DNA from: Gammaproteobacteria bacterium
Lineage (GTDB): Bacteria; Pseudomonadota; Gammaproteobacteria; Steroidobacterales; Steroidobacteraceae
NCBI GenBank assembly: GCA_013289615.1
Contig: JABCZO010000010.1
Span: 1 to 64,000 of the forward strand
Direction of reading: 5' to 3'
Length of the DNA: 64,000 nucleotides
Of the stretch, positions 45,826-64,000 are shown one piece after another. Every line of letters begins with the position of its first letter. Within the stretch, counting starts at the first letter, position 1. The position numbers and the translations under genes are program-made. The notes beneath the pieces were generated by a model. The model was not told the DNA's origin and did not search any database. It worked only from the letters and a program-made list of their open reading frames with translations.

Positions 45826-47280
45826 TCAGACCGCGATACAGGCGTTGCGGCCGCTGTTCTTCGCCTTGTAGAGCGCCGCGTCGGCGCGGTCGAACACCGT
45901 GTCCACGGTGTCACCCTCGCGCAGCGCCGTGAGCCCGCATGACACCGTCACCTGCACTGGCGTGCCGTGAAAATGGAACCGCAGCGATTCGACGGCGACA
46001 CGCATCTCCTCCGCCGCCAGCAGCGCATCGCCGAGCTCGCTGCCCACCAGCAGGCTCACAAACTCCTCGCCGCCAAAGCGGGCGAAGAAATCAACTTCGC
46101 GCCGGCCGCGACTCAACGCAATCGCGACCTCGCGCAACACGGCGTCGCCGCCACGATGGCCGCAGGCATCGTTGATCGACTTGAAGCGATCGATGTCCCA
46201 GACCAGGATCGCCACCGGGTGTTGAAAGCGTTTCCAGCGCGCCAGTTCCTCGGCGAAGCGCTCGTCGAACGACACCCGGTTGGAGACGCGGGTCAGCGTA
46301 TCGATGCGCGAGCGCAGTTTCTCCAGATCCAGATTGCGGCTCAGCTCGCGCGACTCCTTCTCGAGCACCGCCAGCCGCGAATGCATGCGCTCCGAGCGCG
46401 CCGCGTTCTCGGCGAAGCGATTGCGCTCGCGCTCGCGAAATTCACGCACATTGCTCGCCACCACCTCGAGGCGTTCGGTCACCAGTGCGCGCAGCGCCGC
46501 CAGGTCATCGAGCGTTCGCACCTCATCGGTCATGCGCGTCATCTGCGTCAGCAGCCCGATATCGAGCGTCTCGCGGTCCCGGTGGTCGCGGGCCCGCTCG
46601 GCGCTCTCGCCCGACAGGAACTTCGCCATCTCCCCGAGGCGTTCGGTCACCTGTGCCAGCGTCACAACCGCCTCCGCCCGCTCGCGGGCGATCGCGGCAC
46701 TGTGCTGGGCAACCAGATCGCTGACACGCAGCAGCACGGCGGCGAGGGCGGCATCGTCGGCGGCAGCGGCAAGATCGCTGCGCAGCGCCGTCAGATCGGC
46801 GCCGCGTGTATCGGATTGACCGAGCCGGTCGATCAGCATATCAACGGCCTGGCAGCTCGACTGCCAGCGCCGTTCCGGCACCGGGCCTGCACTGCTGGCA
46901 ACCGGCGATAGTGGTGCGGGTGCCGGCAGCGGCGACGGCAGCGGCGACGGCAGCGTCGCCGGCGCTACCGCGGCAGGTTTCTCCACCGCCATGATCACGC
47001 CGGTCAGTGAATCAAACAGTGCCTTGAGCTGCGGCTCGTCGGCATCGCGACGGGTCGCGGCGCACAGGGTCTCGAGCTGCCTATCCAGGCGCGCATCGTT
47101 GCCCATCGCCGCTGCACACAGCCGCTGCACCAGCCGCCGCAGGATCTGCTCGATCCCGCGCCAGCGGCGTTCCTCGGTCTCCATCTCGCGCAGCGCGTCG
47201 AGATGTCGTTTTCTCCAGTCGACGGCTTCGGCCACGCGACACTCGCCTACGGTGATAGTCAACGAGGCTATCGGCCGCAA
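45826..47280 (-). CDS. diguanylate cyclase
   Basis: 484 aa. The N-terminal ~330 residues are helical with a Pro-rich hinge (LPSPLPSPLPAPAPLSP) and coiled-coil segments. The GGDEF domain has LTRVSNRVSFDER and the active-site loop FARFGGEEFVSLLVG. An inhibitory RxxD (REVD) lies five residues before it, so product feedback is likely. No transmembrane helix is seen. It makes c-di-GMP, in contrast to the degraded GGDEF at 28931. The start may be the later GTG (VAEAVDWRKRH). Confidence 0.92.
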   Translation of the reverse strand: MRPIASLTITVGECRVAEAVDWRKRHLDALREMETEERRWRGIEQILRRLVQRLCAAAMGNDARLDRQLETLCAATRRDADEPQLKALFDSLTGVIMAVEKPAAVAPATLPSPLPSPLPAPAPLSPVASSAGPVPERRWQSSCQAVDMLIDRLGQSDTRGADLTALRSDLAAAADDAALAAVLLRVSDLVAQHSAAIARERAEAVVTLAQVTERLGEMAKFLSGESAERARDHRDRETLDIGLLTQMTRMTDEVRTLDDLAALRALVTERLEVVASNVREFRERERNRFAENAARSERMHSRLAVLEKESRELSRNLDLEKLRSRIDTLTRVSNRVSFDERFAEELARWKRFQHPVAILVWDIDRFKSINDACGHRGGDAVLREVAIALSRGRREVDFFARFGGEEFVSLLVGSELGDALLAAEEMRVAVESLRFHFHGTPVQVTVSCGLTALREGDTVDTVFDRADAALYKAKNSGRNACIAV

Positions 47281-47399
47281 ACGGCCTGGCTTGAGCTCGC
47301 GGCGGCGACATCGCCTGAGCCGGCTTAGCGCTGCCTGTCAGTTCAATAACTTACCTTCCCGCTCGACGAACGAGCGCTGAGCGGGCCTGGCAAGCGCTG

Positions 47400-48269
47400 C
47401 TATCGCGTCAGGCGCTTGCGGATTGACAACAGTTCGCGCCGGCGCTCGGGGCTGCTCTTCGGATAGGTCATCTTCAGGGCTTCGAGCGCGTCCAGGACGA
47501 CCCGGGAGACGATCAAGCGCGAGTTCTTCCGGTCGTCGGCGGGAACGATATACCAGGGGGCTTGCCTGGTGCTGGTGGCACTCAGGCAATCCTCATAGGC
47601 CTTCATATATTGCTTCCAGTAACCGCGCTCCTCGAGGTCGGCCAGGCTGAATTTCCAGTTCTTCTCCGGGTTGTCGATGCGCTCGAGGAAGCGCTTGCGC
47701 TGCTCGTCCCTGGACAGGTGCAGGAAGAACTTGATGATGCGGGTGCCGTTCTGGTGCAGATGCCCCTCCAGCCCGACAATGGATCGATAGCGCTTGTGCC
47801 AGATGGCTTTCTCGCTCGATGGCGCATCCGGCAACCCCTCGCTGCGCAGGATCTGCGGGTGCACGCGCACGATCAGCACCTCCTCGTAGTACGAGCGATT
47901 GAAGATGCCGATCCGGCCGCGTTCGGGCAGTTCACGGGTGGTGCGCCAGAGAAAATCATGCTGCAACTCCATCGGGTTCGGATGCTTGAAGCTGACTACC
48001 TGGCAGCCCTGCGGGTTGACCCCGGACATCACATGCCGGATCACGCTATCCTTGCCGGCCGCGTCCATCGCCTGGAAGATCAGCAGGATCGCGTGGCTGT
48101 TGGACGCGTACAAAAGCTGCTGTAGCGCGCTCAACTGCGCCACCTGCTCGCCGAGCAGTCTCTGATAGTGATGCTCTGACTTGTAAGCGGGCGCCACGCG
48201 GGTCGGCCACTTGCGCAGCTTGACCTCCTCGCCTTCGCGTACCTGGAAATGGCTGGGATTAAATTTCAT
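47400..48269 (-). CDS. ppk2: PPK2-family polyphosphate kinase
   Basis: 289 aa. Walker [27 protein letters not shown], Walker B region [21 protein letters not shown] and lid [10 protein letters not shown] are all present. PPK2 enzymes move phosphate between polyphosphate and nucleotides. The short single-domain form and MSGVNPQG wording resemble class III, which can phosphorylate AMP and ADP; the class is inferred. The start overlaps the alcohol dehydrogenase stop by 11 bases, so it closes the energy block. Confidence 0.9.
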
Positions 48270-49266
48270 CGCGATCCCCTGTCGATGGTAGCAGCACGGC
48301 AGCGCCCTCGAAGCGCCCGGCCCGCAGGTCGGCCAGCGCCTGATTCGCCTGTTGCAACGGATAGGACGTGGTTTGGGTGACGATTCCGATTTCCGGCGCC
48401 AGCCGCAGGAAATCCAGGCCGTCCTGGCGCGTGAGATTGGCGACCGACAGCAGTTGCCGCTCCTCCCACAGTAATCGATAGGGGAAGGCCGGGATATCGC
48501 TCATATGGATCCCGGCACACACCACGCGCCCGCCCTTGCGCACCGCCCTGAGCGCCAGCGGCACCAGATCGCCGAGCGTGGCGTAGATGATCGCGGCATC
48601 GAGCGGCTCGGGCGGCGGCTGGTCGGATCCGCCGGCCCAGCTCGCGCCCAGTCGCCGGGCGAAGCCCTGCGTGGCCACATCGCCCGGGCGGGTGAAGGCA
48701 AACACCGATCGCCCCTGCCAGCGCGCAACCTGCGCGACGATGTGCGCCGCGGCACCGAATCCGTACAGCCCGAGCTTTTTCCCGTCACCGGCGATCCGCA
48801 GCGATCGCCACCCGATCAGTCCGGCGCACAGCAAAGGCGCCAGTGCCACCGCGTCACCGCTCTCGCCGAGTGCAAACGCATAGCGCGCATCGGCAATGGT
48901 CGCGGTGGCGAAGCCACCGTCACGTGTATAGCCGGTGAACAGCGGCGCATCGCACAGATTTTCCCGGCCGCCGATGCAATACGCGCACACCCCGCAGGTA
49001 TGCCCGAGCCACGGAATACCGACGCGCTGATCGATGCGCAGCGCATGAACCCCCGGCCCGATGGCATCGATCCGGCCGATGATTTCATGACCCGGAATGA
49101 TCGGCAGCCTTGGATCGGGCAGTTCGCCGTCGACGACGTGCAGGTCGGTACGGCACACGCCGCAGGCGGCCACCCGGACGCGAATCTGGCCCGGTCCGGG
49201 CAAGCGCTCGGGAAGCTCGCTCCATTCCAGGGCGCCGCTCAGCCGCTTCAGCACCATCGCCTGCAT
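48259..49266 (-). CDS. zinc alcohol dehydrogenase (AdhA/AdhP-like)
   Basis: 335 aa, medium-chain dehydrogenase. Catalytic zinc region [13 protein letters not shown] (Cys38) and GHE (His60, Glu61); structural zinc [15 protein letters not shown]; nucleotide-binding [18 protein letters not shown]. It probably interconverts ethanol and acetaldehyde or similar. The glycine pattern is GxGxxx with Ala, a mild deviation. Downstream ppk2 overlaps it. A 200-bp gap without a gene (49267-49468) precedes it, which probably holds its promoter. Confidence 0.9.
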
Positions 49267-49468
49267 TGTTTACAGCGGCTCCGCGCCCGGCTGCGTACGC
49301 CAGCGTACAGACTGCACCGCGCTTGATCCTTAGGCTAGTTGAGAGCTCGACACTATCTGAAGGCGACGACGGATGCTGGAAACCATTTCCGTGTTGATGC
49401 ACATCATTCGCGGCCGCAATCCGCTCTAGGTGCAGCCGTCGATGAACGCCCCCGCTACCTCGCCCCGC

Positions 49469-49795
49469 CTATCGGCCGCGCGAACGCGACGGCAGCGACG
49501 GCATGGGTCGCGACGCCGATGCTGGTCGATAGGCGGGATGTGGTGCTGCGTGGCCATCCGCTCGGCCAGCGCGATCGTCCGGTCGTCCACCGCGATCGTA
49601 TCCGCGTCGTGGCAGGCCGACTCCGTAGCCGGGCCCCCAACCGCCATAGTCATAGCCATACGGCTCATAGAAGCCCACGTCGTAGCCGACGCTGGCGCCA
49701 CCGCCGTAGCCCCCGCCCGCCACGCAGCCGGCCAGTGCTGCGAGCCATGCCAGGATCAGTGCGCGCCGCGACCGACGATTCATTAGGATTTTCAT
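49469..49795 (-). CDS. Gly/Tyr-rich lipoprotein
   Basis: 108 aa from ATG 49795 (MKILMNRRSRRALILAWLAALAGCVAGGGYGGG). A lipoprotein signal with lipobox LAGC is clear. The rest is Gly/Tyr/Arg/Pro-rich (YDVGFYEPYGYDYGGWGPGYG) and looks like an envelope protein of low complexity. The ATG overlaps the VOC stop (ATGA). The track ORF start (50377) lies inside the VOC gene in another frame. Function unknown. Confidence 0.65.
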   Translation of the reverse strand: MKILMNRRSRRALILAWLAALAGCVAGGGYGGGASVGYDVGFYEPYGYDYGGWGPGYGVGLPRRGYDRGGRPDDRAGRADGHAAPHPAYRPASASRPMPSLPSRSRGR

Positions 49796-50718
49796 TTCGC
49801 GGTGTCCTTGCTGTCGGCGTCGGTCCACTCCAGCAACCCGAACGGTGCGCCGGCAGGATCGGCCACGACCGCGACCAGACCACCGTGCCGGTCGCGAAAC
49901 GGCTGTACCAGCACACGACCCCCGAGCGACGCGACCCGGGTGATCGTGTCGGTCGCACTGGTGACGCGCACGAAGTTGAGCCAGTGCGGGTGGCGCTTGG
50001 CCGCGCCGCCGGCCGGCAGGGTGTTCAGGCTGGCGCGCGCCACATCCTCGCTGGACAGCACGATATGCATCGCGCCGTCCTCGCCCGGCATCTCGAACAC
50101 CTCGTAGCCAAATACGTTCTGGTAGAACGCCGCGTCCTGGTCCGGATCGCGCGTCAGGACCGAGCTCCAGATCCACTCGCCGGGCGCCGCCAGTACATCC
50201 TCCGGATCGCCGCTGGAGGATTGCAGCACCGCGAACACCGCCCCCTGCGGATCGGCGAATACCGCCTGGCGGCCGCGCTCGGCGTACAGGCGCGGCGGCG
50301 CCAGCAGCTTGCCGCCGTGCGCCAGGATGCTGTGCTCGGCGTCGGCCACATCGCGCACCGAGATGAAGGTTAGCCACGCCGGCTGGCGCTGCTCGCCGCT
50401 GCGAAGCGTGTGCTGATACAGGCCGCCGACCGGCCGCCCGTCGAGCAGCGCCACCGAGTAGTCGCTCGCTCCGGTGTGAATGTCGTTGAAGCTCCAGCCG
50501 AACAGCGCGCCGTAGAAGCGTTTCGCGGCGGCCAGGTCCGGCGTCACGAGATCCGCCCAGATCACCTTGCCGGCGTGGCGTTCGCTGCTGGCGGGCTGCA
50601 CCAGCGGTGGCAGCACGAAGCTCGCCGCGGCGGCGACTGCCACCAGCGCGACGCTCAGCAGCGCACCGAGGCTCAGTCGCACCAAAACGCCGTCTTTACC
50701 CCGATGTCGTCCATTCAT
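49792..50718 (-). CDS. exported VOC (glyoxalase-fold) protein, two domains
   Basis: 308 aa with an N-terminal hydrophobic anchor (LSLGALLSVALVAVAAAASFVL). Two VOC units follow: KVIWADLVTPDLAAAKRFYGALFGWSF and GEWIWSSVLTRDPDQDAAFYQNVFGYEVFEM, each ending in a GAVFAVLQ/GAPFGLLE strand. Metal ligands are not certain, so a binding role is as likely as catalysis. It lies 120 bases after atpG on the same strand; that gap has no gene. Confidence 0.85.
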   Translation of the reverse strand: MNGRHRGKDGVLVRLSLGALLSVALVAVAAAASFVLPPLVQPASSERHAGKVIWADLVTPDLAAAKRFYGALFGWSFNDIHTGASDYSVALLDGRPVGGLYQHTLRSGEQRQPAWLTFISVRDVADAEHSILAHGGKLLAPPRLYAERGRQAVFADPQGAVFAVLQSSSGDPEDVLAAPGEWIWSSVLTRDPDQDAAFYQNVFGYEVFEMPGEDGAMHIVLSSEDVARASLNTLPAGGAAKRHPHWLNFVRVTSATDTITRVASLGGRVLVQPFRDRHGGLVAVVADPAGAPFGLLEWTDADSKDTAK

Positions 50719-50838
50719 GCTGTGGCCCCCGGATTGCGCCCAGGCAATCGCCCAAGCTTACCCCCGGCCAGCGCGCCGAGTGATTCGCCGCTCGCTGATC
50801 TGAACGGTAAACTTCGCCTACAACGACAGGCGCCGCGT

Positions 50839-51747
50839 TCACAGCCCGTGCGACAGAGCCTCGAAGCCGGATACGACGTCGAACAGTTCCTCGTCGATCG
50901 AGCTCTGGCGCAGGCGGTGAAAGTTCGCATTCATATCGACCAGCAATTCATCGATGTTTTTCTCTGCCCGCTGCATGGCCGCCAGGCGGCTGGCATTCTC
51001 GCTGGCGAGCGACTCGGCGCAGGCGCGAAACAACGACACGAACAGATATTCGCCAATCAGGGCCTGCAATGTCGTGGTTGCCATGCCCAACACCTCGGGC
51101 AGATTGCGCGTCGGCCAGTGCCGCTGCATCAGCCCGCGGCGCCAGGCCGCATCCAAAGGCAGCAGGCGCTCGGTCGCCGGGGTATAGATCGCGCCCGAGC
51201 TTGGCCGGTTATAGAACAGATAGAGCTCGGCGCCGCGGCCGGACGCCGCAAATGCATCGGCCTCGCGCAGAATCTGCGCCACCAGCGCGGTGATCGCGGC
51301 CACCGAGGCGGGGACGGCGAATACACCGGCGGCCGCGAGACCGGCGTCTGCCAGCCGAGCCTGCACGCGCTCGCCCACTGCCCAGACCTGGACTGGTTGG
51401 TGAACTGCCGCCAGCGTGTCGAGGGCGTGAATGGCGATCGCATCGTTGAACTGGCCCACTAGGCCCTGGTCGGAACCGAACACGATCGCACCGATGGCGC
51501 GGCCGCGTGTCGGTCCGGATGCGTCGGCCGCCGGCGCCGCCACCGCGGGGGCCGGGGTCGACCTATCCTGGCGGAAGCTCGCGCTCAGGCCGAGTTCCAC
51601 AGTGCGAAGGTAATCGGCCAGTGCAGCGACCGATCTTTCGTATTGCACAATGCTCGATGCCGCCACGGCTTTCATCGTGCGCACCACCGATCCGAGCTCG
51701 CCGGCGCTTTCGATCTTGCGCCGCAGAGCGGCACTCGAGTCGCTCAC
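50839..51747 (-). CDS. atpG: N-ATPase gamma subunit
   Basis: 302 aa from GTG 51747, which overlaps the atpA stop (GTGA); the track start lies inside atpA. The N-terminal helix [26 protein letters not shown] and the C-terminal [49 protein letters not shown] form the coiled-coil rotor axle. Sequence is divergent from housekeeping gamma, as in N-type ATPases. Last gene of atpDCQRBEFAG. Confidence 0.9.
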
Positions 51748-53300
51748 GGCCTGGCCGCCGCCGCGGCCGACGCGGGCTGGAAACGTGCGAGCGCGTTGCC
51801 GGCCATCGTGACGATTGCGGCACGATCCTCGGCGCCGAATTTCTGTTCCGTGCTCAGCCGCTCGCACAGCGCTGGCGCAATGTCGGCGGCGGCTACGCGC
51901 AGCGCCTGCTCGGCGGCGCTCACCTGCTCGAGCAGCACGCGATCGAACAGCCCCGCCGTCAGCGCCAGCAGCACGGCGATCTGCGCCGGCACCGAAACCG
52001 GCGAGAATTCCGACTGCTTCAGGCAGGCACGGATACGCCGCCCGTGCTCGATGATCTTGCGGGTATCGTCATCCAGCCGCGCGCCGAACCGGGCAAAGTT
52101 CTCCAGTTCCTCGAACTGCGCAAAGGCGAGTTTGAGGTCGCCCGCGACCGCGCGATAGGCCGCGCGCTGCGCCTTGCCCCCGACGCGCGACACCGACTTG
52201 CCGACATCGACCGCCGGCAGTATCCCGGACTCGAACAGCGATGGCGACAGGTAGATCTGCCCGTCGGTGATCGAAATCAGGTTGGTCGGTATGTAGGCGG
52301 AGATGTCCTGCGCCTCGGTTTCGACGATCGGCAACGCGGTGAGCGAACCGCCGCCGCGCGCCTTAGCCAGGTGGGTGGCGCGCTCCAGCAGCCGCGAATG
52401 AATATAGAAGATATCTCCTGGAAACGCTTCGCGTCCCGGCGGGCGGCGCAGCAGCAGTGACAGCTCGCGGTAGGCGCGTGCGTGATTGGTCAGGTCGTCA
52501 TAGACGATCAGCACATCGCGCCCCTGCTCCATGAAGTGCTCCGCGATGCTGGTGGCCGCATAGGGGGCGATGTAGGTGAGGCCGGGCGCATCGTTGCCCG
52601 CGGTCACGACGACGACGGTATGGTCCATCGCGCCCCTGGAGCGCAACGCGGCGATCACCTTGGCGACGCCGGACTCGCGCTGGCCGATCGCGCAATACAC
52701 GCACAGCACGTCCTGGCCGCGCTGGTTGAGAATCGCATCCAGTGCAATGGCGGTCTTGCCGGTCTGGCGATCACCGAGAATCAATTCGCGCTGGCCACGC
52801 CCGATCGGGATCAGCGCGTCGATCACCTTCAGCCCGGTCTGCAGCGGTTCGGTGACCGGTGCGCGCTGTATGATCGGTGGCGCCGGCCGCTCGATCGGCA
52901 GGCGCCGGACCGCGACCACCGGCCCCTGGCCGTCGAGCGCCCGACCAAGCGGATCGATGACGCGCCCTAGCAGGGTGTCGCCCACCCCCACATCCATGAC
53001 GCGGCCGGTGCGTTCCACCTCATCGCCTGCCTGCAGGTGCCAGTAATCACCGAGCAGCACCACACCAATCTCGGCCGCATTCACGTTGAACGCGATGCCG
53101 GACACATCGCCGGGGAAATTGATCAACTCTTCGGAGCCCACGCCGGGAATACCCGTCACCGTGGCGATCCCGGTCGATACGTTGGTGATGGTTCCCACTT
53201 CCCGCAGCCTGAGCGGGGCGCTGAAGGCCTCGCGCGCGCGAGTCAACTGCGCAAATGCGCTCTGCAGGGCGCACTGGAGACTGCCCGCGGTCGCGTTCAT
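51744..53300 (-). CDS. atpA: N-ATPase alpha subunit
   Basis: 518 aa non-catalytic nucleotide-binding subunit. Walker [61 protein letters not shown], and the arginine-finger region [10 protein letters not shown] are intact. The start overlaps the atpF stop (ATGA). It pairs with the beta subunit at 56120-57571 in an F1-like head. Confidence 0.95.
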
Positions 53301-54097
53301 TGGCTGGCGCCTGACGCTGGCGCCGCCGCCGCCGGCGTCGAAGCTGATCCGAGGATGTCGCCGACGCTCTTCTCGAGCGCACCAAGGTAATCCGCGACGC
53401 TCCAGGCAAGCTTGCGTCCGCTCGCGTGCAGCTCCAGGCCGCTGATGAGCCCCGGCACGGTCTCGTAATTCAGCCGGCTGACGCTGGCGCCGATTTCCGA
53501 CAGCGCCTGTTCGATGGCGGTGCGCTGCTGCGCCGGCAGTTCGAACGCACTGCGCACGACCAGCGCGCCGGCTGCAGCCTCGGTGGCCGAGGTGAGCAGC
53601 TTGCGGTCGGCGCCGCTCAATGCCCGAATGCGCTCGACGAACACACGCGCCATGCTGTCTTCCAGACTCGCGGTCGCCAGATCCGCCAGCACTTTGCGAG
53701 CGATCGCGAGCACCTGGTCGCGGGTCCTGCGTGCCACCTCGGCGCTCAGGAGCTGCTGTTCGCTGCGCAACAGGTCGGCGAGCCGCAAGCGCAATGCTTC
53801 GGCATCCTTGTGCGCCTGTTCGAGTAAGCGCTGATGCTCGGCCCTTGCCTGCTCGCTCGCCTGCGCGAGCAACGCCGCGCGCTGGGCGTCGAATTCCCGG
53901 TTGTTACGCTCGAATTCATCGCGCTCCTTGGTCGCGGCAGCCTGCTTGCTCGCAGCGTCCGCCAGCTGCATGCCAATGCGCTGCTCGCGTACGCTGATCG
54001 CGTTGAGCACGGGCTGGTACAGGAAGCGCTTCAATAACCAGACCAGGATCAGGAAATTGAGTGCCTGCGCGCCGACCGTGAACCAATCGATCAGCAC
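53297..54097 (-). CDS. atpF: N-ATPase subunit b with delta-like C-terminus
   Basis: 266 aa, longer than ordinary b (about 156). A membrane helix ([26 protein letters not shown]) is followed by a long Ala/Glu/Arg coiled coil. The C-terminal part ([51 protein letters not shown]) resembles delta. No separate atpH exists in the operon, as expected of N-ATPases. The start is GTG. Acts as peripheral stalk. Confidence 0.92.
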
Positions 54098-54100
54098 GGG

Positions 54101-54382
54101 TCACTTTCCGGCGGCGTGAGCGATCACGCTGTTCCAGAACGGATTGGCGAAGATCAGGATCATCGACACCACGAAACAATAGATGGCCGTGGATTCGATC
54201 ATCGCCAGTCCGACGAACAGCGTACGAGTGATCGTGGCGGACGCATCAGGCTGCTGAGCCAATGAACTGAGCGCCGTCGCCACGGCCTTGCCTTCCCCGA
54301 GCGCAGGCCCCAGCACGCCGAAGCCGGTGGTAATGCCGGCGGTGACGATCGACGCCACCGCAATGATGGTCATGCTATCCAA
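54101..54382 (-). CDS. atpE: N-ATPase subunit c (proteolipid)
   Basis: 93 aa from TTG 54382, chosen because GGAGG stands four bases upstream and the result (MDSMTIIAVASIV) fits N-type c subunits; ATG 54373 is 13 bases from the site. The track ORF start lies in atpB. Two helices with a loop: GPALGEGKAV has Glu30 and MIESTAIY has Glu63, Ser64, Thr65 and Tyr68. Two carboxylates per site are the N-ATPase hallmark. It forms the rotor ring. Confidence 0.9.
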   Translation of the reverse strand: MDSMTIIAVASIVTAGITTGFGVLGPALGEGKAVATALSSLAQQPDASATITRTLFVGLAMIESTAIYCFVVSMILIFANPFWNSVIAHAAGK

Positions 54383-54414
54383 AGTGCCTCCTTCCGTTGA
54401 GGTTCGCTCATTGC

Positions 54415-55116
54415 TCAAGGCGCCGGCGCCGGGCCGCGCTCCTGCTCCAGCTCGCTGGCACGCGTCGCGGCCGCGATATACACCGCGGCGAGGATGCTGA
54501 AGATATAGGCCTGCACGATGCCGGTAAGCAGGCCGAGCAAAGTCATCACCAGCGGAAAGATGAACGGCGTGATCGTGAGCAGGATGGCGACGATCATCGA
54601 TCCACTCATCATGTTGCCGAACAGCCGCACGGCGAGCGCCAGCGTGCGGGAGAATTCGCTGATGATATTGAACGGCAGCATGATGAAGGTCGGCTTCAGG
54701 TACGACGCAAGGTAGCTGCCGAGACCCTGCTCGAGGATGCCGAACAGCGGCACGGCTACCAGCACGCACAGCGCCAGCGCAGCCGTCGTCGACAGCGAAG
54801 CGGTGGGCGGCTCGTAGCCGGGGATGATCGTGCACAGCGCCGCCGTCGCCAGGAACAGAAACAGCGTGCCCAGGAACGGCAGATATTTGCGCGGTCGGCT
54901 CAAACCCACCGCTTCGATCTGCTGCTCGATGCCGGTGACGATGATTTCCAGCAGATCCTGCCAGCGCGAGCGCTCTGGACCCAGCGACAGCGTACGGGTG
55001 ATGAGTTTTGAGCCCACCGCCAGAATGAGCATCAACCCCCAGGTGAAGGCAATCGTCGCGTTGAGCTTTAACGGCCCGTGCTGCCAGAAAACCAGCTGGT
55101 CGGGGCTAAGGTGCAT
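54415..55116 (-). CDS. atpB: N-ATPase subunit a
   Basis: 233 aa from ATG 55116 (MHLSPDQLVFWQHGPLKLNATIAFTW), since the track start lies in atpR. About five to six membrane helices. The essential Arg sits in SEFSRTLALAVRLFGNMMSGSM. It forms the stator half-channels next to the c ring. Overlaps atpR by 11 bases. The 32-base gap before atpE holds the c-subunit ribosome site. Confidence 0.93.
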   Translation of the reverse strand: MHLSPDQLVFWQHGPLKLNATIAFTWGLMLILAVGSKLITRTLSLGPERSRWQDLLEIIVTGIEQQIEAVGLSRPRKYLPFLGTLFLFLATAALCTIIPGYEPPTASLSTTAALALCVLVAVPLFGILEQGLGSYLASYLKPTFIMLPFNIISEFSRTLALAVRLFGNMMSGSMIVAILLTITPFIFPLVMTLLGLLTGIVQAYIFSILAAVYIAAATRASELEQERGPAPAP

Positions 55117-55426
55117 GGTTGCTGCCGCCTGCTGATTGCGGCCGTGGGCCGGCATCTGCGGTGAGCCGGATCACGATGACGCGCGCCATGACGAAGCCGG
55201 CCACGCAAACCAGCAGCCGCTCCCAGGAGCCGCGCGCGACCAGATAGAAACCGAGCATAGCGACACCGGTTCGCAGCAGCAGGCTGAGGGAAAACCACAG
55301 CCCCGTATGTCGCGAGCCAATGCCACGTACGACGGTCCACCACAGGCCGCCGAAATAGGCCGCCCCGAGGAGCAGGCCGGCGGCGAGCGCCAGCAGCACT
55401 GCCGACAGGTCAATCATCGCCGGCAC
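55106..55426 (-). CDS. atpR: N-ATPase accessory subunit AtpR
   Basis: 106-aa membrane protein with three helices (AVLLALAAGLLLGAAYFGGLWWTVV, LWFSLSLLLRTGVAMLGFYLVA, LLVCVAGFVMARVIVIRL). Short membrane AtpR proteins between AtpQ and subunit a are specific to N-ATPase operons; they may help ring assembly. Overlaps atpQ by 17 bases (8 if MIDLS at 55417 is used) and atpB by 11. Confidence 0.85.
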   Translation of the reverse strand: MPAMIDLSAVLLALAAGLLLGAAYFGGLWWTVVRGIGSRHTGLWFSLSLLLRTGVAMLGFYLVARGSWERLLVCVAGFVMARVIVIRLTADAGPRPQSAGGSNHAP

Positions 55427-55740
55427 CGCCGTGCTGGTGGATATCCCTGCTCTCCCTGGTCACCCAATGCCACGCGTTCCAACAGCCCAGAGCCAGGCCA
55501 CCGATGAGCAGCGCAATCGTCCAGGAGTGACTTCCCGGGTGGTGCCGGTCCAGCCATACGCCGAGCGCCGCACCGAGCAGCGTCGGCACCGTCACCGACC
55601 AACCGACCAGTCCCATCATTCCCAGCCCGGACCAGATGATCCGGGCGGGTCGGTGCTGCGCTGCAAGCTTGCGCGCGACGCTGGCGTCAATCTGCTTCTT
55701 GAACTGCGCCTGATCCGGCGCACCGTCGGTAGGGGGCGGC

Positions 55741-55748
<8 letters not shown>
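55410..55748 (-). CDS. atpQ: N-ATPase accessory subunit AtpQ
   Basis: 112 aa from GTG 55748, which overlaps the atpC stop; the track start lies inside atpC. Soluble N-terminus (DQAQFKKQIDASVARKLAAQHRP) and two helices (MGLVGWSVTVPTLLGAALGVWLDR, WTIALLIGGLALGCWNAWHWV) as in AtpQ/AtpZ-like proteins, thought to assist Fo assembly. Diagnostic, with AtpR, for the N-type operon. Confidence 0.87.
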
Positions 55749-59999
<4,251 letters not shown>

Positions 60000-60136
60000 G
60001 GCGGTGTCCCTTGCAGATCAAAACAATCCTTGAGCGAGGCGCATGGCGCCGCAGGCTGCTGCGCATGGCAGGCGCCACCTCGTACAGATTAGACACCGCG
60101 CAGATGACAGGTCTGTACGCAAACGTACCGTCGCGC

Positions 60137-62662
60137 TCATCGCTGCCACAGAATGCGAGCCTCCTCGAGCGGAACCGCAACGCCGTCGAACTGCGGGCTC
60201 AGGCGCGGCGTGTAGTCGGTGTGCGGACGCGTCGCTGGCACCGAGCCGCTATAGCGGTACACGCCGGCAGCGGCCGGCTGCTGGGCGCGCGTCATCGGAT
60301 AGCGCTCGGCATCACCCTGCCCGCTCGCATCGGCATACAGTTCCACCGCTACGCAATCGGGTGCAAGTTCAGCCAGGGTGACCTCGATCTCGAACGCATG
60401 GCCGCGCGCGCTGGTTTGGGTCTTCAGCACGCCAAAGTGCAGCCGGTCCCAGTAGCGCTCCAGCTGCCGCTGCCAGTCAAGGATCTGCTGTGCCTTGCGG
60501 GCCTTGTCTGTCACCCGAGCGCGCAATCGATCGGAGGCGGGCAGGTAATACTGTTCGGTGTAGTCGCGCACCGCGCGCAGGCTGGAGAAAACCGGCGTCA
60601 GGCGCGCCATGCTCTCGCGCATGCGGGCCACCCACGCGCTCGGAATGCCGTGCGCGTCGCGCGCATAGAATTCGCGAATCACCTCGCGCTCGAGCACCTC
60701 GTACAGCGCGCGCGCATCGGCCTCGTCCACCGCCGGATCGTCGCCGTGCTCCTGAGCGTCCCCGAGGGCCCAACCCACCTCCGGCGCGTAGGCTTCCGCC
60801 CACCAGCCGTCGAGCGTCGACAGGTTCACGCCACCGTTGACCAGCACCTTCATGCCGCTGGTACCGCAGGCTTCCCACGGCCGGCGCGGCGTATTGAGCC
60901 AGACGTCAACGCCCTGCACCAGTTGCTCGGTGAGCATCACATCGTAGTCGCTGAGGAAGACGACGCGCGAGCGCACCTCGTCGCGGCGAAGGAACTGCGT
61001 CCACTGGCGGATCAGCTCCTGCCCCCCGGCATCGGCCGGGTGAGCCTTGCCGGCCAGGATCAACTGCACCGGTCGCTCAGCATTGCACAGCAGGCGCAAC
61101 AGGCGCTCCGGGTCGTGCAGCAGCAGATTCGGTCGTTTGTAGGTCGCGAAGCGCCGTGCGAAGCCGATCGTCAACACCCGCGCATCGAGCACCTGCCGTG
61201 CCGCCTGCACCGCCTCCGGCGACTCGCCCGACGCGGCCCACTGGCGCGATAGTCGGCCGCGTGCATAGCCGACCAGTGTCTCGCGGCTGCTGTTGCGGTA
61301 GCTCCAGAGTTGCGCGTCGGACAGGCGCCGAATGAGGTCAGGGTCGGATTCATTCGGCACGCGCCAGCGATCCTTGCCGCAGGCGCCGGTCCACAAGCGG
61401 TCGGACGCCGCGGAATCCCAGGTCGGTGTATGCACCCCGTTGGTGACCGATCGCACCGGCACTTCCGCCTGCGGCCAGCCGGGAAACAGCACGCCAAAGA
61501 TGTGGCGGCTGACCTCGCCGTGCAGGCGGCTCACGCCGTTGACCGCGCCGCTGCCGCGGATCGCCAGATACGCCATGTTGAAGCTCTCGGTGCGATCTGC
61601 CGGGTCGCGCCGTCCAAGGGCGAGCAGCTGATCGATCGGGATGTGCAGCCGGCGCTGCGCGTAGGCGCCCAGGTATTGCTCGATCAGGGTCGGCGCAAAG
61701 CGGTCAAAGCCAGCCGCGACCGCGGTGTGGGTGGTGAACAGGTTGCCGACGCGGGTTGCCGTCAGGGCGAGCTCGAATGATTGTCCGGTCTGCTCCATCA
61801 GGCTGCGGGCACGTTCCAGCACGGCAAAGGCGGCGTGGCCCTCGTTCAGGTGGCAAACTTCCGGCTCCATGCCGAGCGCGGCCAGCAGCCGCCAGCCGCC
61901 AATGCCCAGCAGCAGTTCCTGCTGCAGTCGCAACTCCGGGCCGCCGCCATACAGCTCGCTGGTGATGGCGCGCCAGGCCGGAAAGTTCGCCGCATCGTTG
62001 CTGTCGAGCAGATACAGCTGGACCCGCCCGATCTGCACCTGCCAGGTGCGCAACCACACCGAATAGCCCGGCAGGTCGATCTTTATCCGCAGCCACTCAC
62101 CATCCGGCCCGCGCAATGGGCTGATCGGCAACTGCCCCGGGTCGTTGTACGGAAACAGCGCCTGCTGGGCGCCCTGCTGGTCGATCACCTGACGGAAATA
62201 GCCCTGCTGGTAGAGCAGCCCGACGCCCACCACCGGCACGCCCAGATCGCTGGCCGCCTTGAGCTGATCGCCGGCGACATTTCCCAGTCCGCCGGAGTAG
62301 ATCGGCAGCGCCTCGCTCAGCATGAACTCCATGCTGAAATAGGCCACGCGCTTCAAGGCCGACTGCGGATAGTTGCTCTGGAACCAGGCCGGCGCGTCGA
62401 GTGCCTGGCGACGGGTGCGCACCAGCATCTCCACCTGGTCGCGAAATTTCGCATCCGCCGACGCGCGCTGCAGGCACTCGCGCGAAACGGTCTGCAGCAC
62501 CACCCAGGGGTTATGCGTGAGGTCCCACAGCTCGCAATCCAGCTGCCGCCACAATCCGTCGGCCGCGTGATTCCACGACCAGCGCACGTCCAGGGCCAGC
62601 TCCGCCAGCGCGTCGAAACCATCGACGTCGCTCGGCAGGCGCGTCGGCACGCTAGGCGACAT
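60137..62662 (-). CDS. glgP: alpha-glucan phosphorylase (GT35)
   Basis: 841 aa. Releases glucose-1-phosphate from glycogen or maltodextrin. RVAYFSMEFMLSEALPIYSGGLGNVAGDQLKAASDLG, HLNEGHAAFAVLERA and the PLP-lysine site EACGTSGMKVLVNGGVNLSTLDGWWAE are present. The N-terminal domain is of the shorter bacterial alpha-glucan phosphorylase type rather than GlgP of E. coli. It lies 15 bases after pgm and upstream of xfp, so glucan carbon enters the phosphoketolase route. Confidence 0.95.
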   Translation of the reverse strand: MSPSVPTRLPSDVDGFDALAELALDVRWSWNHAADGLWRQLDCELWDLTHNPWVVLQTVSRECLQRASADAKFRDQVEMLVRTRRQALDAPAWFQSNYPQSALKRVAYFSMEFMLSEALPIYSGGLGNVAGDQLKAASDLGVPVVGVGLLYQQGYFRQVIDQQGAQQALFPYNDPGQLPISPLRGPDGEWLRIKIDLPGYSVWLRTWQVQIGRVQLYLLDSNDAANFPAWRAITSELYGGGPELRLQQELLLGIGGWRLLAALGMEPEVCHLNEGHAAFAVLERARSLMEQTGQSFELALTATRVGNLFTTHTAVAAGFDRFAPTLIEQYLGAYAQRRLHIPIDQLLALGRRDPADRTESFNMAYLAIRGSGAVNGVSRLHGEVSRHIFGVLFPGWPQAEVPVRSVTNGVHTPTWDSAASDRLWTGACGKDRWRVPNESDPDLIRRLSDAQLWSYRNSSRETLVGYARGRLSRQWAASGESPEAVQAARQVLDARVLTIGFARRFATYKRPNLLLHDPERLLRLLCNAERPVQLILAGKAHPADAGGQELIRQWTQFLRRDEVRSRVVFLSDYDVMLTEQLVQGVDVWLNTPRRPWEACGTSGMKVLVNGGVNLSTLDGWWAEAYAPEVGWALGDAQEHGDDPAVDEADARALYEVLEREVIREFYARDAHGIPSAWVARMRESMARLTPVFSSLRAVRDYTEQYYLPASDRLRARVTDKARKAQQILDWQRQLERYWDRLHFGVLKTQTSARGHAFEIEVTLAELAPDCVAVELYADASGQGDAERYPMTRAQQPAAAGVYRYSGSVPATRPHTDYTPRLSPQFDGVAVPLEEARILWQR

Positions 62663-62677
62663 ACTTGCCGTGCCGGC

Positions 62678-64000
62678 TCATGGCAGCGCTGCCAGCGCCT
62701 CGCCGACGATGGCCTCGGCTTCGCTCAGCACTCGCTGCAGGTGATCGGCGCCACGAAAGCTCTCGCCATAGACCTTGTAGATGTCTTCGGTCCCCGACGG
62801 GCGCGCCGCGAACCAGCCGTTGTCGGCGATGACCTTCAGGCCGCCGATCGCGGCGCCATTACCGGGCGCCTGGGTGAGGATGCTGCGGATCGGCTCGCCG
62901 GCGAGCTGCTTCGAGCTGACCTGGTGCGGGGAGAGCTTTGCGAGCAATGCCTTCTGCGCCGGCGTCGCCTTGGCATCCACGCGATCGCTGACGCATTCAC
63001 CGAACTGGCCGCTCAGCTGCCGGTAGAGCGTGCCCGGGTCGCGATCCAAGGCTGCACTGATCTCCGCGGCGAGCAGCGCCGGAACGATGCCGTCCTTGTC
63101 GGTGGTCCATGTCGTGCCGTCGCGGCGCAGGCAAGTGGCCCCGGCGCTCTCCTCTCCGCCGAAGCCCAGCGAGCCATCGAGCAGGCCATCGACAAACCAC
63201 TTGAAGCCCACCGGGACCTCGTACAGCCTGCGGCCCAGTTTTGCCGCCACGCGGTCGATCATCTGGCTGCTGACGACTGTCTTGCCCACCGCAGCGTCGG
63301 CACGCCATTGCGGCCGATGCCGGAACAGGTAGTCGATCGCCACCGACAGGTAATGGTTCGGGGGCAGCAGGCCGCTGCTGTGGGTGACGATGCCATGCCG
63401 GTCATGATCGGTGTCGCAGCCAAACGCGATGTCGAATCGATCCTTCAGTGCGATCAATCGCCGCATCGCATAGGACGAGGACGGATCCATCCGGATCTTT
63501 CCGTCCCAGTCCACGCTCATGAAGCGGAAGGTCGGATCGACCTCGTCGCTGACCACCGTAAGATCGAGCCCGTAGCGATCCGCAATCGGACCCCAGTAAT
63601 GCACGCCGGCGCCGCCCAGGGGATCCACGCCCATGCGGATCTTCGAGCCGCGGATGACGCCCATGTCGATCACGTTGTCGAGGTCGCCGATGTAGGCGGC
63701 GAGGTAATCGTGCCGGTGCGTGCTCGGCCGGCGCAGCGCCTGAGCCACGGAAATGCGCTTGACGCCGACAAGGCCCGCCGCCATGAGCTGGTTGGCACGC
63801 GCCTGGATCCAGCCGGTGACGTCGGTATCGGCCGGTCCGCCGTTGGTCGGGTTGTACTTGAAGCCACCGGCATCGGGTGGATTGTGCGATGGGGTGATGA
63901 CGATGCCGTCGGCAAGCCCCGATTTGCGCGCGCGGTTGTAGCTCACAATCGCGTGCGACACCGCGGGCGTCGGCGTGTATTCGTCGTCCTGCGCCAGCAT
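62678..64000 (-). CDS. pgm: phosphoglucomutase, 5' end outside window
   Basis: The last 440 residues of an alpha-D-phosphohexomutase of the 546-aa bacterial Pgm type. The phosphoserine loop [24 protein letters not shown], Mg loop [12 protein letters not shown], sugar loop [13 protein letters not shown] and C-terminal phosphate loop [16 protein letters not shown] are present. Interconverts glucose-1-P and glucose-6-P, the step after GlgP. The reading continues past base 64000. Fifteen bases from glgP, so the same transcript is likely. Confidence 0.95.

What the first reader, a model, noticed from the sequence alone, without database searches (positions are those of the whole stretch)
54101..54382. 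c subunit with two carboxylates in one ion site
The rotor helix pair contains Glu30 (GPALGEGKAV) at the position of the Na+-ATPase Gln, and Glu63 with Ser64, Thr65 and Tyr68 (MIESTAIY), the other Na+-type ligands. Na+ and H+ signatures are mixed. A characterised N-type c ring from Burkholderia was reported as proton-specific despite this architecture, so the ion here is a real question.
Basis: partly seen in the sequence, partly recalled or inferred. Interest (0 to 1): 0.5.

Follow-up and report, generated by a model that had tools for sequence, protein, structure and literature searches.

The report
Ordinary sodium-type N-ATPase rotor subunit
This is the rotor subunit of a second, well-known kind of bacterial ion-pumping ATPase, and its ion site carries the standard sodium-binding residues rather than an unusual sodium/proton mixture, so it is an ordinary member of a known family.

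Summary
The residues are real, but the gene is on the minus strand (54382-54101, TTG start). Glu30, Glu63, Ser64, Thr65 and Tyr68 are all there. It is the c subunit of a complete N-type ("alternate F1F0") ATPase operon, beta-epsilon-Q-R-a-c-(b-delta)-alpha-gamma; every subunit passes its curated NCBIfam cut-off. "Mixed Na+ and H+ signatures" does not hold: Glu in place of Gln, with Glu-Ser-Thr..Tyr, is the site of the crystallised two-carboxylate ring of Fusobacterium nucleatum, which carries Na+ while the extra Glu stays protonated. The proton-specific Burkholderia ring does not have this architecture; it reads Glu-Thr-Met..Tyr, the pattern of a separate N-ATPase clade. Among 168 distinct N-type-like c subunits gathered here the window's pattern was the commonest (91), and a published survey already splits 1,807 N-ATPases into 914 Na+ and 893 H+ types by motif. 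Best call: an ATP-driven Na+ pump beside a normal F-type ATP synthase. Mildly interesting side points: residue 65 changes at least 11 times within the Ser64 clade, while residues 30 and 64 each change once on the tree; and I found no measured ring size for an N-type ring with the Na+ motif.

The parts
54101..54382 (-). c subunit (atpE), 93 aa, TTG start; E30, E63, S64, T65, Y68
   Evidence: (TIGR03322, 162 bits)
54415..55155 (-). a subunit (atpB), with the conserved stator Arg at residue 177 (AVRLFGN)
   Evidence: TIGR03306, 364 bits
55106..55426 (-). AtpR
   Evidence: TIGR03165; PF12966 'N-ATPase, AtpR subunit'
55410..55754 (-). AtpQ (start codon not settled)
   Evidence: TIGR02230; PF09527
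55744..56178 (-). epsilon subunit (true start probably inside this ORF)
   Evidence: TIGR03166 and NF004871 over cut-off
56120..57571 (-). beta subunit (atpD), first gene of the operon
   Evidence: TIGR03305, 858 bits
53297..54097 (-). b subunit fused with a delta/OSCP-like part
   Evidence: TIGR03321; PF00430 plus a marginal PF00213 hit, 23.1 bits against a cut-off of 22.3
51744..53300 (-). alpha subunit
   Evidence: TIGR03324, 889 bits
50839..51747 (-). gamma subunit (start inferred at the GTG that overlaps the alpha stop)
   Evidence: TIGR03323, 400 bits on 50842-51801

Best explanation
The gene encodes the c subunit of an N-type rotary ATPase that most likely pumps Na+ out of the cell at the cost of ATP, beside a separate ordinary F-type ATP synthase. 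Na+ sits between neighbouring c subunits, bound by one carboxylate oxygen of E63, one of E30, the side chain of S64, the backbone carbonyl of residue 61 (the F. nucleatum V63 position) and a water held by T65; Y68 and S64 hydrogen-bond to E63. E30 stays protonated and acts like the Gln of Ilyobacter, so one ion per site moves. The conserved Arg of subunit a takes part in ion release at the stator. Shown here: the residues, the complete operon, the family, and the same-register match to a solved Na+ ring. Inferred: the geometry, Na+ preference at physiological Na+ and pH, and the direction of pumping.
For: All subunits over curated N-ATPase cut-offs; AtpR and fused b-delta. GEG and EST..Y in register with 3zk1, whose site binds Na+ through exactly these residues and transports Na+ only under physiological conditions (PMC3692424). 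ProAD calls a site with the complete motif Na+-specific and finds H+-F plus Na+-N the commonest F/N combination. A second, F-type c subunit with Asp is in the same genome. A Na+-only ATP-driven pump, likely of F type, was purified from A. halophytica (PMC2928168), and a Na+-coupled N-type enzyme is reported for that species (cited in PMC5376962).
Against: The only N-type ring with a published structure and ion test in the papers read is H+-specific, though from a clade with other ligands. Such sites are intrinsically H+-selective and use Na+ only because it is in excess. N-ATPase transcripts of PCC 7002, which has EST..Y, did not rise with salt (PMC3468840). No NQR/Rnf or NhaA was found in this incomplete genome, so a large Na+ economy is not evident; two PF00999 exchangers are present.
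Confidence: 0.78

Rival explanations
1. The ring is proton-coupled, like the Burkholderia c17 ring: E63 carries H+, and S64, T65 and Y68 only support the hydrogen-bond network.
For: The one N-type c ring tested for ion choice is H+-specific; about half of N-ATPases are predicted H+.
Against: That ring has Thr-Met where this has Ser-Thr and belongs, by its ligands, to a separate clade. The window has every ligand of a proven Na+ ring.
Confidence: 0.15
2. The ring is promiscuous: it carries Na+ or H+ according to pH and Na+, as reported for the Methanosarcina acetivorans ATP synthase, so neither ion is the coupling ion.
For: PMC3692424 computes that known rings are intrinsically H+-selective and cites dual Na+/H+ coupling in M. 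acetivorans.
Against: The same work finds that the F. nucleatum site, identical in side-chain ligands, moves Na+ only under physiological conditions.
Confidence: 0.07

Closest known systems
N-ATPase (alternate F1F0 ATPase; TIGR03305, 03166, 02230, 03165, 03306, 03322, 03321, 03324, 03323; Dibrova, Galperin and Mulkidjanian 2010)
   Same: Gene order, AtpQ and AtpR, fused b-delta, all subunits over cut-off, F-type synthase elsewhere in the genome.
   Different: Nothing found; TTG start of c is rare (1 of 78 relatives).
Fusobacterium nucleatum Na+ c11 ring with two-carboxylate motif (PDB 3ZK1/3ZK2)
   Same: E30/E63/S64/T65/Y68 correspond to E32/E65/S66/T67/Y70 in register.
   Different: That is an F-type, not N-type, enzyme; helix-1 glycine pattern GxGxGxGxG against VxGxAxGxG here, so ring size may differ.
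Burkholderia pseudomallei N-type c17 ring (Schulz 2017)
   Same: N-type operon, two carboxylates, Tyr ligand.
   Different: Thr62-Met63 instead of Ser64-Thr65; reported H+-specific; AxGxAxAxG in helix 1.
N-ATPase of Picosynechococcus sp. PCC 7002 (plasmid pAQ7)
   Same: EST..Y site and same operon order.
   Different: c subunit about 67% identical; cyanobacterium.

Membership tests
N-ATPase | Operon order beta-epsilon-Q-R-a-c-(b-delta)-alpha-gamma on one strand | tested here: met
N-ATPase | Subunits score above curated 'alternate F1F0 ATPase' cut-offs | tested here: met
   all nine
N-ATPase | AtpQ and AtpR present; delta absent or fused to b | tested here: met
   PF09527, PF12966, PF00430 plus marginal PF00213
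N-ATPase | Another F- or A-type ATPase in the genome | tested here: met
   F-type operon on C32
Na+-specific two-carboxylate c ring (F. nucleatum type) | Glu, Glu, Ser, Thr and Tyr side-chain ligands in register | tested here: met
Na+-specific two-carboxylate c ring (F. nucleatum type) | Na+ protects the essential Glu from carbodiimide; Na+ is transported | not testable with these tools
   needs protein
Na+-specific two-carboxylate c ring (F. nucleatum type) | Undecameric ring with GxGxGxGxG helix 1 | tested here: not met
   window has VxGxAxGxG at 23-31; the ring size itself is not testable here. The fold and site resemble that ring; the claim made is same ion site, not same ring
Burkholderia-type H+ N-ATPase ring | Glu-Thr-Met..Tyr site | tested here: not met
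   window EST..Y against ETM..Y

The most novel reading that the evidence does not exclude
N-type c rings with the full Na+ motif are built on a non-c11 scaffold (window helix 1 VxGxAxGxG), giving a Na+/ATP ratio above that of any characterised F-type Na+ rotor; and the family switches ion by changing the single residue 65 (Thr against Ile, Val, Met or Leu), so that close relatives, perhaps within one genus, differ in ion.
Probability: 0.3. Interest if true: 0.5.

Novelty: new member of a known kind. Interest (0 to 1): 0.17.

Why it matters
As a single case it matters little: one more Na+-type N-ATPase in a family already surveyed by this motif. It removes a false puzzle, because the proton-specific Burkholderia ring does not share the site. 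The side result, one labile ligand (residue 65) in an otherwise fixed site, offers a natural series (Thr, Ile, Val, Met, Leu, Ser) in which the motif rule for ion choice in N-ATPases, so far a prediction, could be tested directly.

Tried and rejected
(1) Rotor-stator covariation: a scan of subunit a against Thr65 in 66 operons gave residue a205 (Thr in 45 of 49 with Thr65, Ser in 12 of 17 without; Fisher 1.5e-8 among 1,063 tests, not corrected for phylogeny). In loci not used to find it, a205 was Q, T, D, S, N, M or H in Thr65 operons and only about three non-Thr cases could be scored, so the link is not confirmed and not claimed. (2) A strong Na+ economy in the genome: NQR/Rnf and NhaA not found; the genome is only about 83% complete. 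(3) The original N-ATPase paper (PMC2881411) is not held; its content is known only through papers that cite it. (5) A single-chain fold of c was not run: the ion site forms between two subunits, so it could not decide the ion. (6) A link between residue 65 and habitat salinity was looked at only through record titles and was not tested.

Full report
Observation. The coordinates 54101-54382 hold a small gene on the minus strand.

What it is. The gene lies in a nine-gene operon running from 57571 down to 50839: beta, epsilon, AtpQ, AtpR, a, c, fused b-delta, alpha, gamma. Every product exceeds the curated cut-off of the matching N-ATPase ("alternate F1F0 ATPase") model. AtpR hits PF12966 "N-ATPase, AtpR subunit", and the b protein also hits the delta/OSCP domain, though only just. 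The same genome carries a separate F-type set whose c subunit has Asp. This is a textbook N-ATPase beside an F-type synthase.

Is the ion site mixed? No. The Fusobacterium nucleatum c11 ring, solved with Na+ bound, uses E32, E65, S66, a backbone carbonyl, and a water on T67, with Y70 stabilising; E32 is protonated throughout and stands in for Gln, and only Na+ is transported under physiological conditions (PMC3692424). A sequence search against solved structures places the window's GEG and EST..Y in the same register as that chain (3zk1). The window therefore has the complete Na+ motif of the two-carboxylate type.

The Burkholderia comparison. The paper on the B. pseudomallei c17 ring names Glu30, Glu61, Thr62, Met63 and Tyr66 around the site (PMC5376962) and finds H+ specificity. 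A B. pyrrocinia N-type c subunit reads GLAMIETMAIY. Ser and Thr are replaced by Thr and Met, so the statement that it is proton-specific "despite this architecture" is mistaken.

How common. In the 80 named loci closest to the window's c subunit the ligand pattern at 30, 63, 64, 65, 68 is EESTY in 56, and EES with Ile, Val, Met or Leu at 65 in 24. In all 168 distinct N-type-like c subunits gathered, the counts are EESTY 91 (one is a Fusobacterium F-type control), EETMY 28, EES[IVML]Y 25, MESLY 13, others 11. The sample is enriched for close relatives of the window, so these are not frequencies for the family. A published survey of GTDB genomes gives 1,807 N-ATPases, 914 Na+ and 893 H+ by the motif (PMC11738941), and the Na+ motif has been reported for individual N-ATPases before, for example in haloalkalitolerant Nitrospira (PMC7784846).

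Evolution of the site. On a tree of 78 operons (beta, alpha and a; 1,236 columns; quick search, one support value), Ser64/Thr64 and Glu30 each need one change; these split a Ser64 clade, a Thr64 clade and a Met30 clade. Thr65 against any other residue needs at least 14 changes, 11 of them within the 66 operons of the Ser64 clade. Well-supported branches alone force at least 7 changes for the EESTY label. Genomes of the window's own genus carry EST (window), ESI (G409) and ETM (G404, G407, G408) types. These are draft genomes, so binning errors could inflate that mixture.

Mechanism. Most likely an ATP-driven Na+ pump with one Na+ per c subunit, E30 as a permanently protonated hydrogen-bond donor, and ion release at the Arg of subunit a. 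Direction and physiological trigger are inferred. The main reservations: in the papers read, no isolated N-type ring with this full motif has had its ion measured; such sites intrinsically prefer H+ and Na+ wins by concentration; and N-ATPase transcripts of PCC 7002, whose c subunit has this motif, did not rise with salt. In favour, a Na+-stimulated ATPase purified from Aphanothece halophytica, likely of F type, pumps only Na+ (PMC2928168), and PMC5376962 credits that species with a Na+-coupled N-type enzyme.

Verdict. It is an ordinary member of a known family and of low interest in itself. Two open, testable points remain: the ring size of N-type rings with the Na+ motif, since the window's helix-1 pattern VxGxAxGxG is neither that of the c11 Na+ rings nor that of the c17 ring, and whether residue 65 is the natural ion switch.

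Noticed in passing
c subunit residue 65 in L062-L161, L034, L170-L174: Residue 65, the water ligand in the Na+ site, changes repeatedly (Thr, Ile, Val, Met, Leu, Ser) while residues 30 and 64 change once each on the tree; the predicted ion would switch many times.
   Followed up: partly
window 45826-64000: On the same strand around the operon: diguanylate cyclase, polyphosphate kinase 2, a zinc-type alcohol dehydrogenase, a glyoxalase-like protein, then after beta a phosphoketolase, a glycogen phosphorylase-like protein and a phosphoglucomutase. This looks like a carbohydrate and energy-stress cluster. Phosphoketolase lies within about 10 kb of 8 of 64 N-ATPase loci, in Pseudomonadota, Myxococcota, Acidobacteriota and Armatimonadota, and in none of the 9 loci of the Thr64 clade; not tested against a background.
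   Followed up: partly
genus of the window's genome: G000, G404, G407, G408, G409: Within one genus N-ATPases of both the EST/ESI and the ETM types occur, and several genomes have none, which fits lateral transfer; draft-genome binning error is not excluded.
   Followed up: partly
L154, L156 and others: A further clade of N-type-like c subunits with Met instead of Glu at residue 30 and Glu-Ser-Leu..Tyr (13 distinct); G102 carries both this and an EST-type set.
   Followed up: no
L023, L155: A c-like protein with neither carboxylate (Ala at 30, Gly at 63); no neighbouring ATPase subunits were found in the 20 kb taken.
   Followed up: no
window subunit a residue 205 (54415-55155, minus strand): Stator residue a205 tracked rotor residue 65 in the first sample (Thr with Thr65, Ser without) but this was not reproduced in new loci.
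   Followed up: yes
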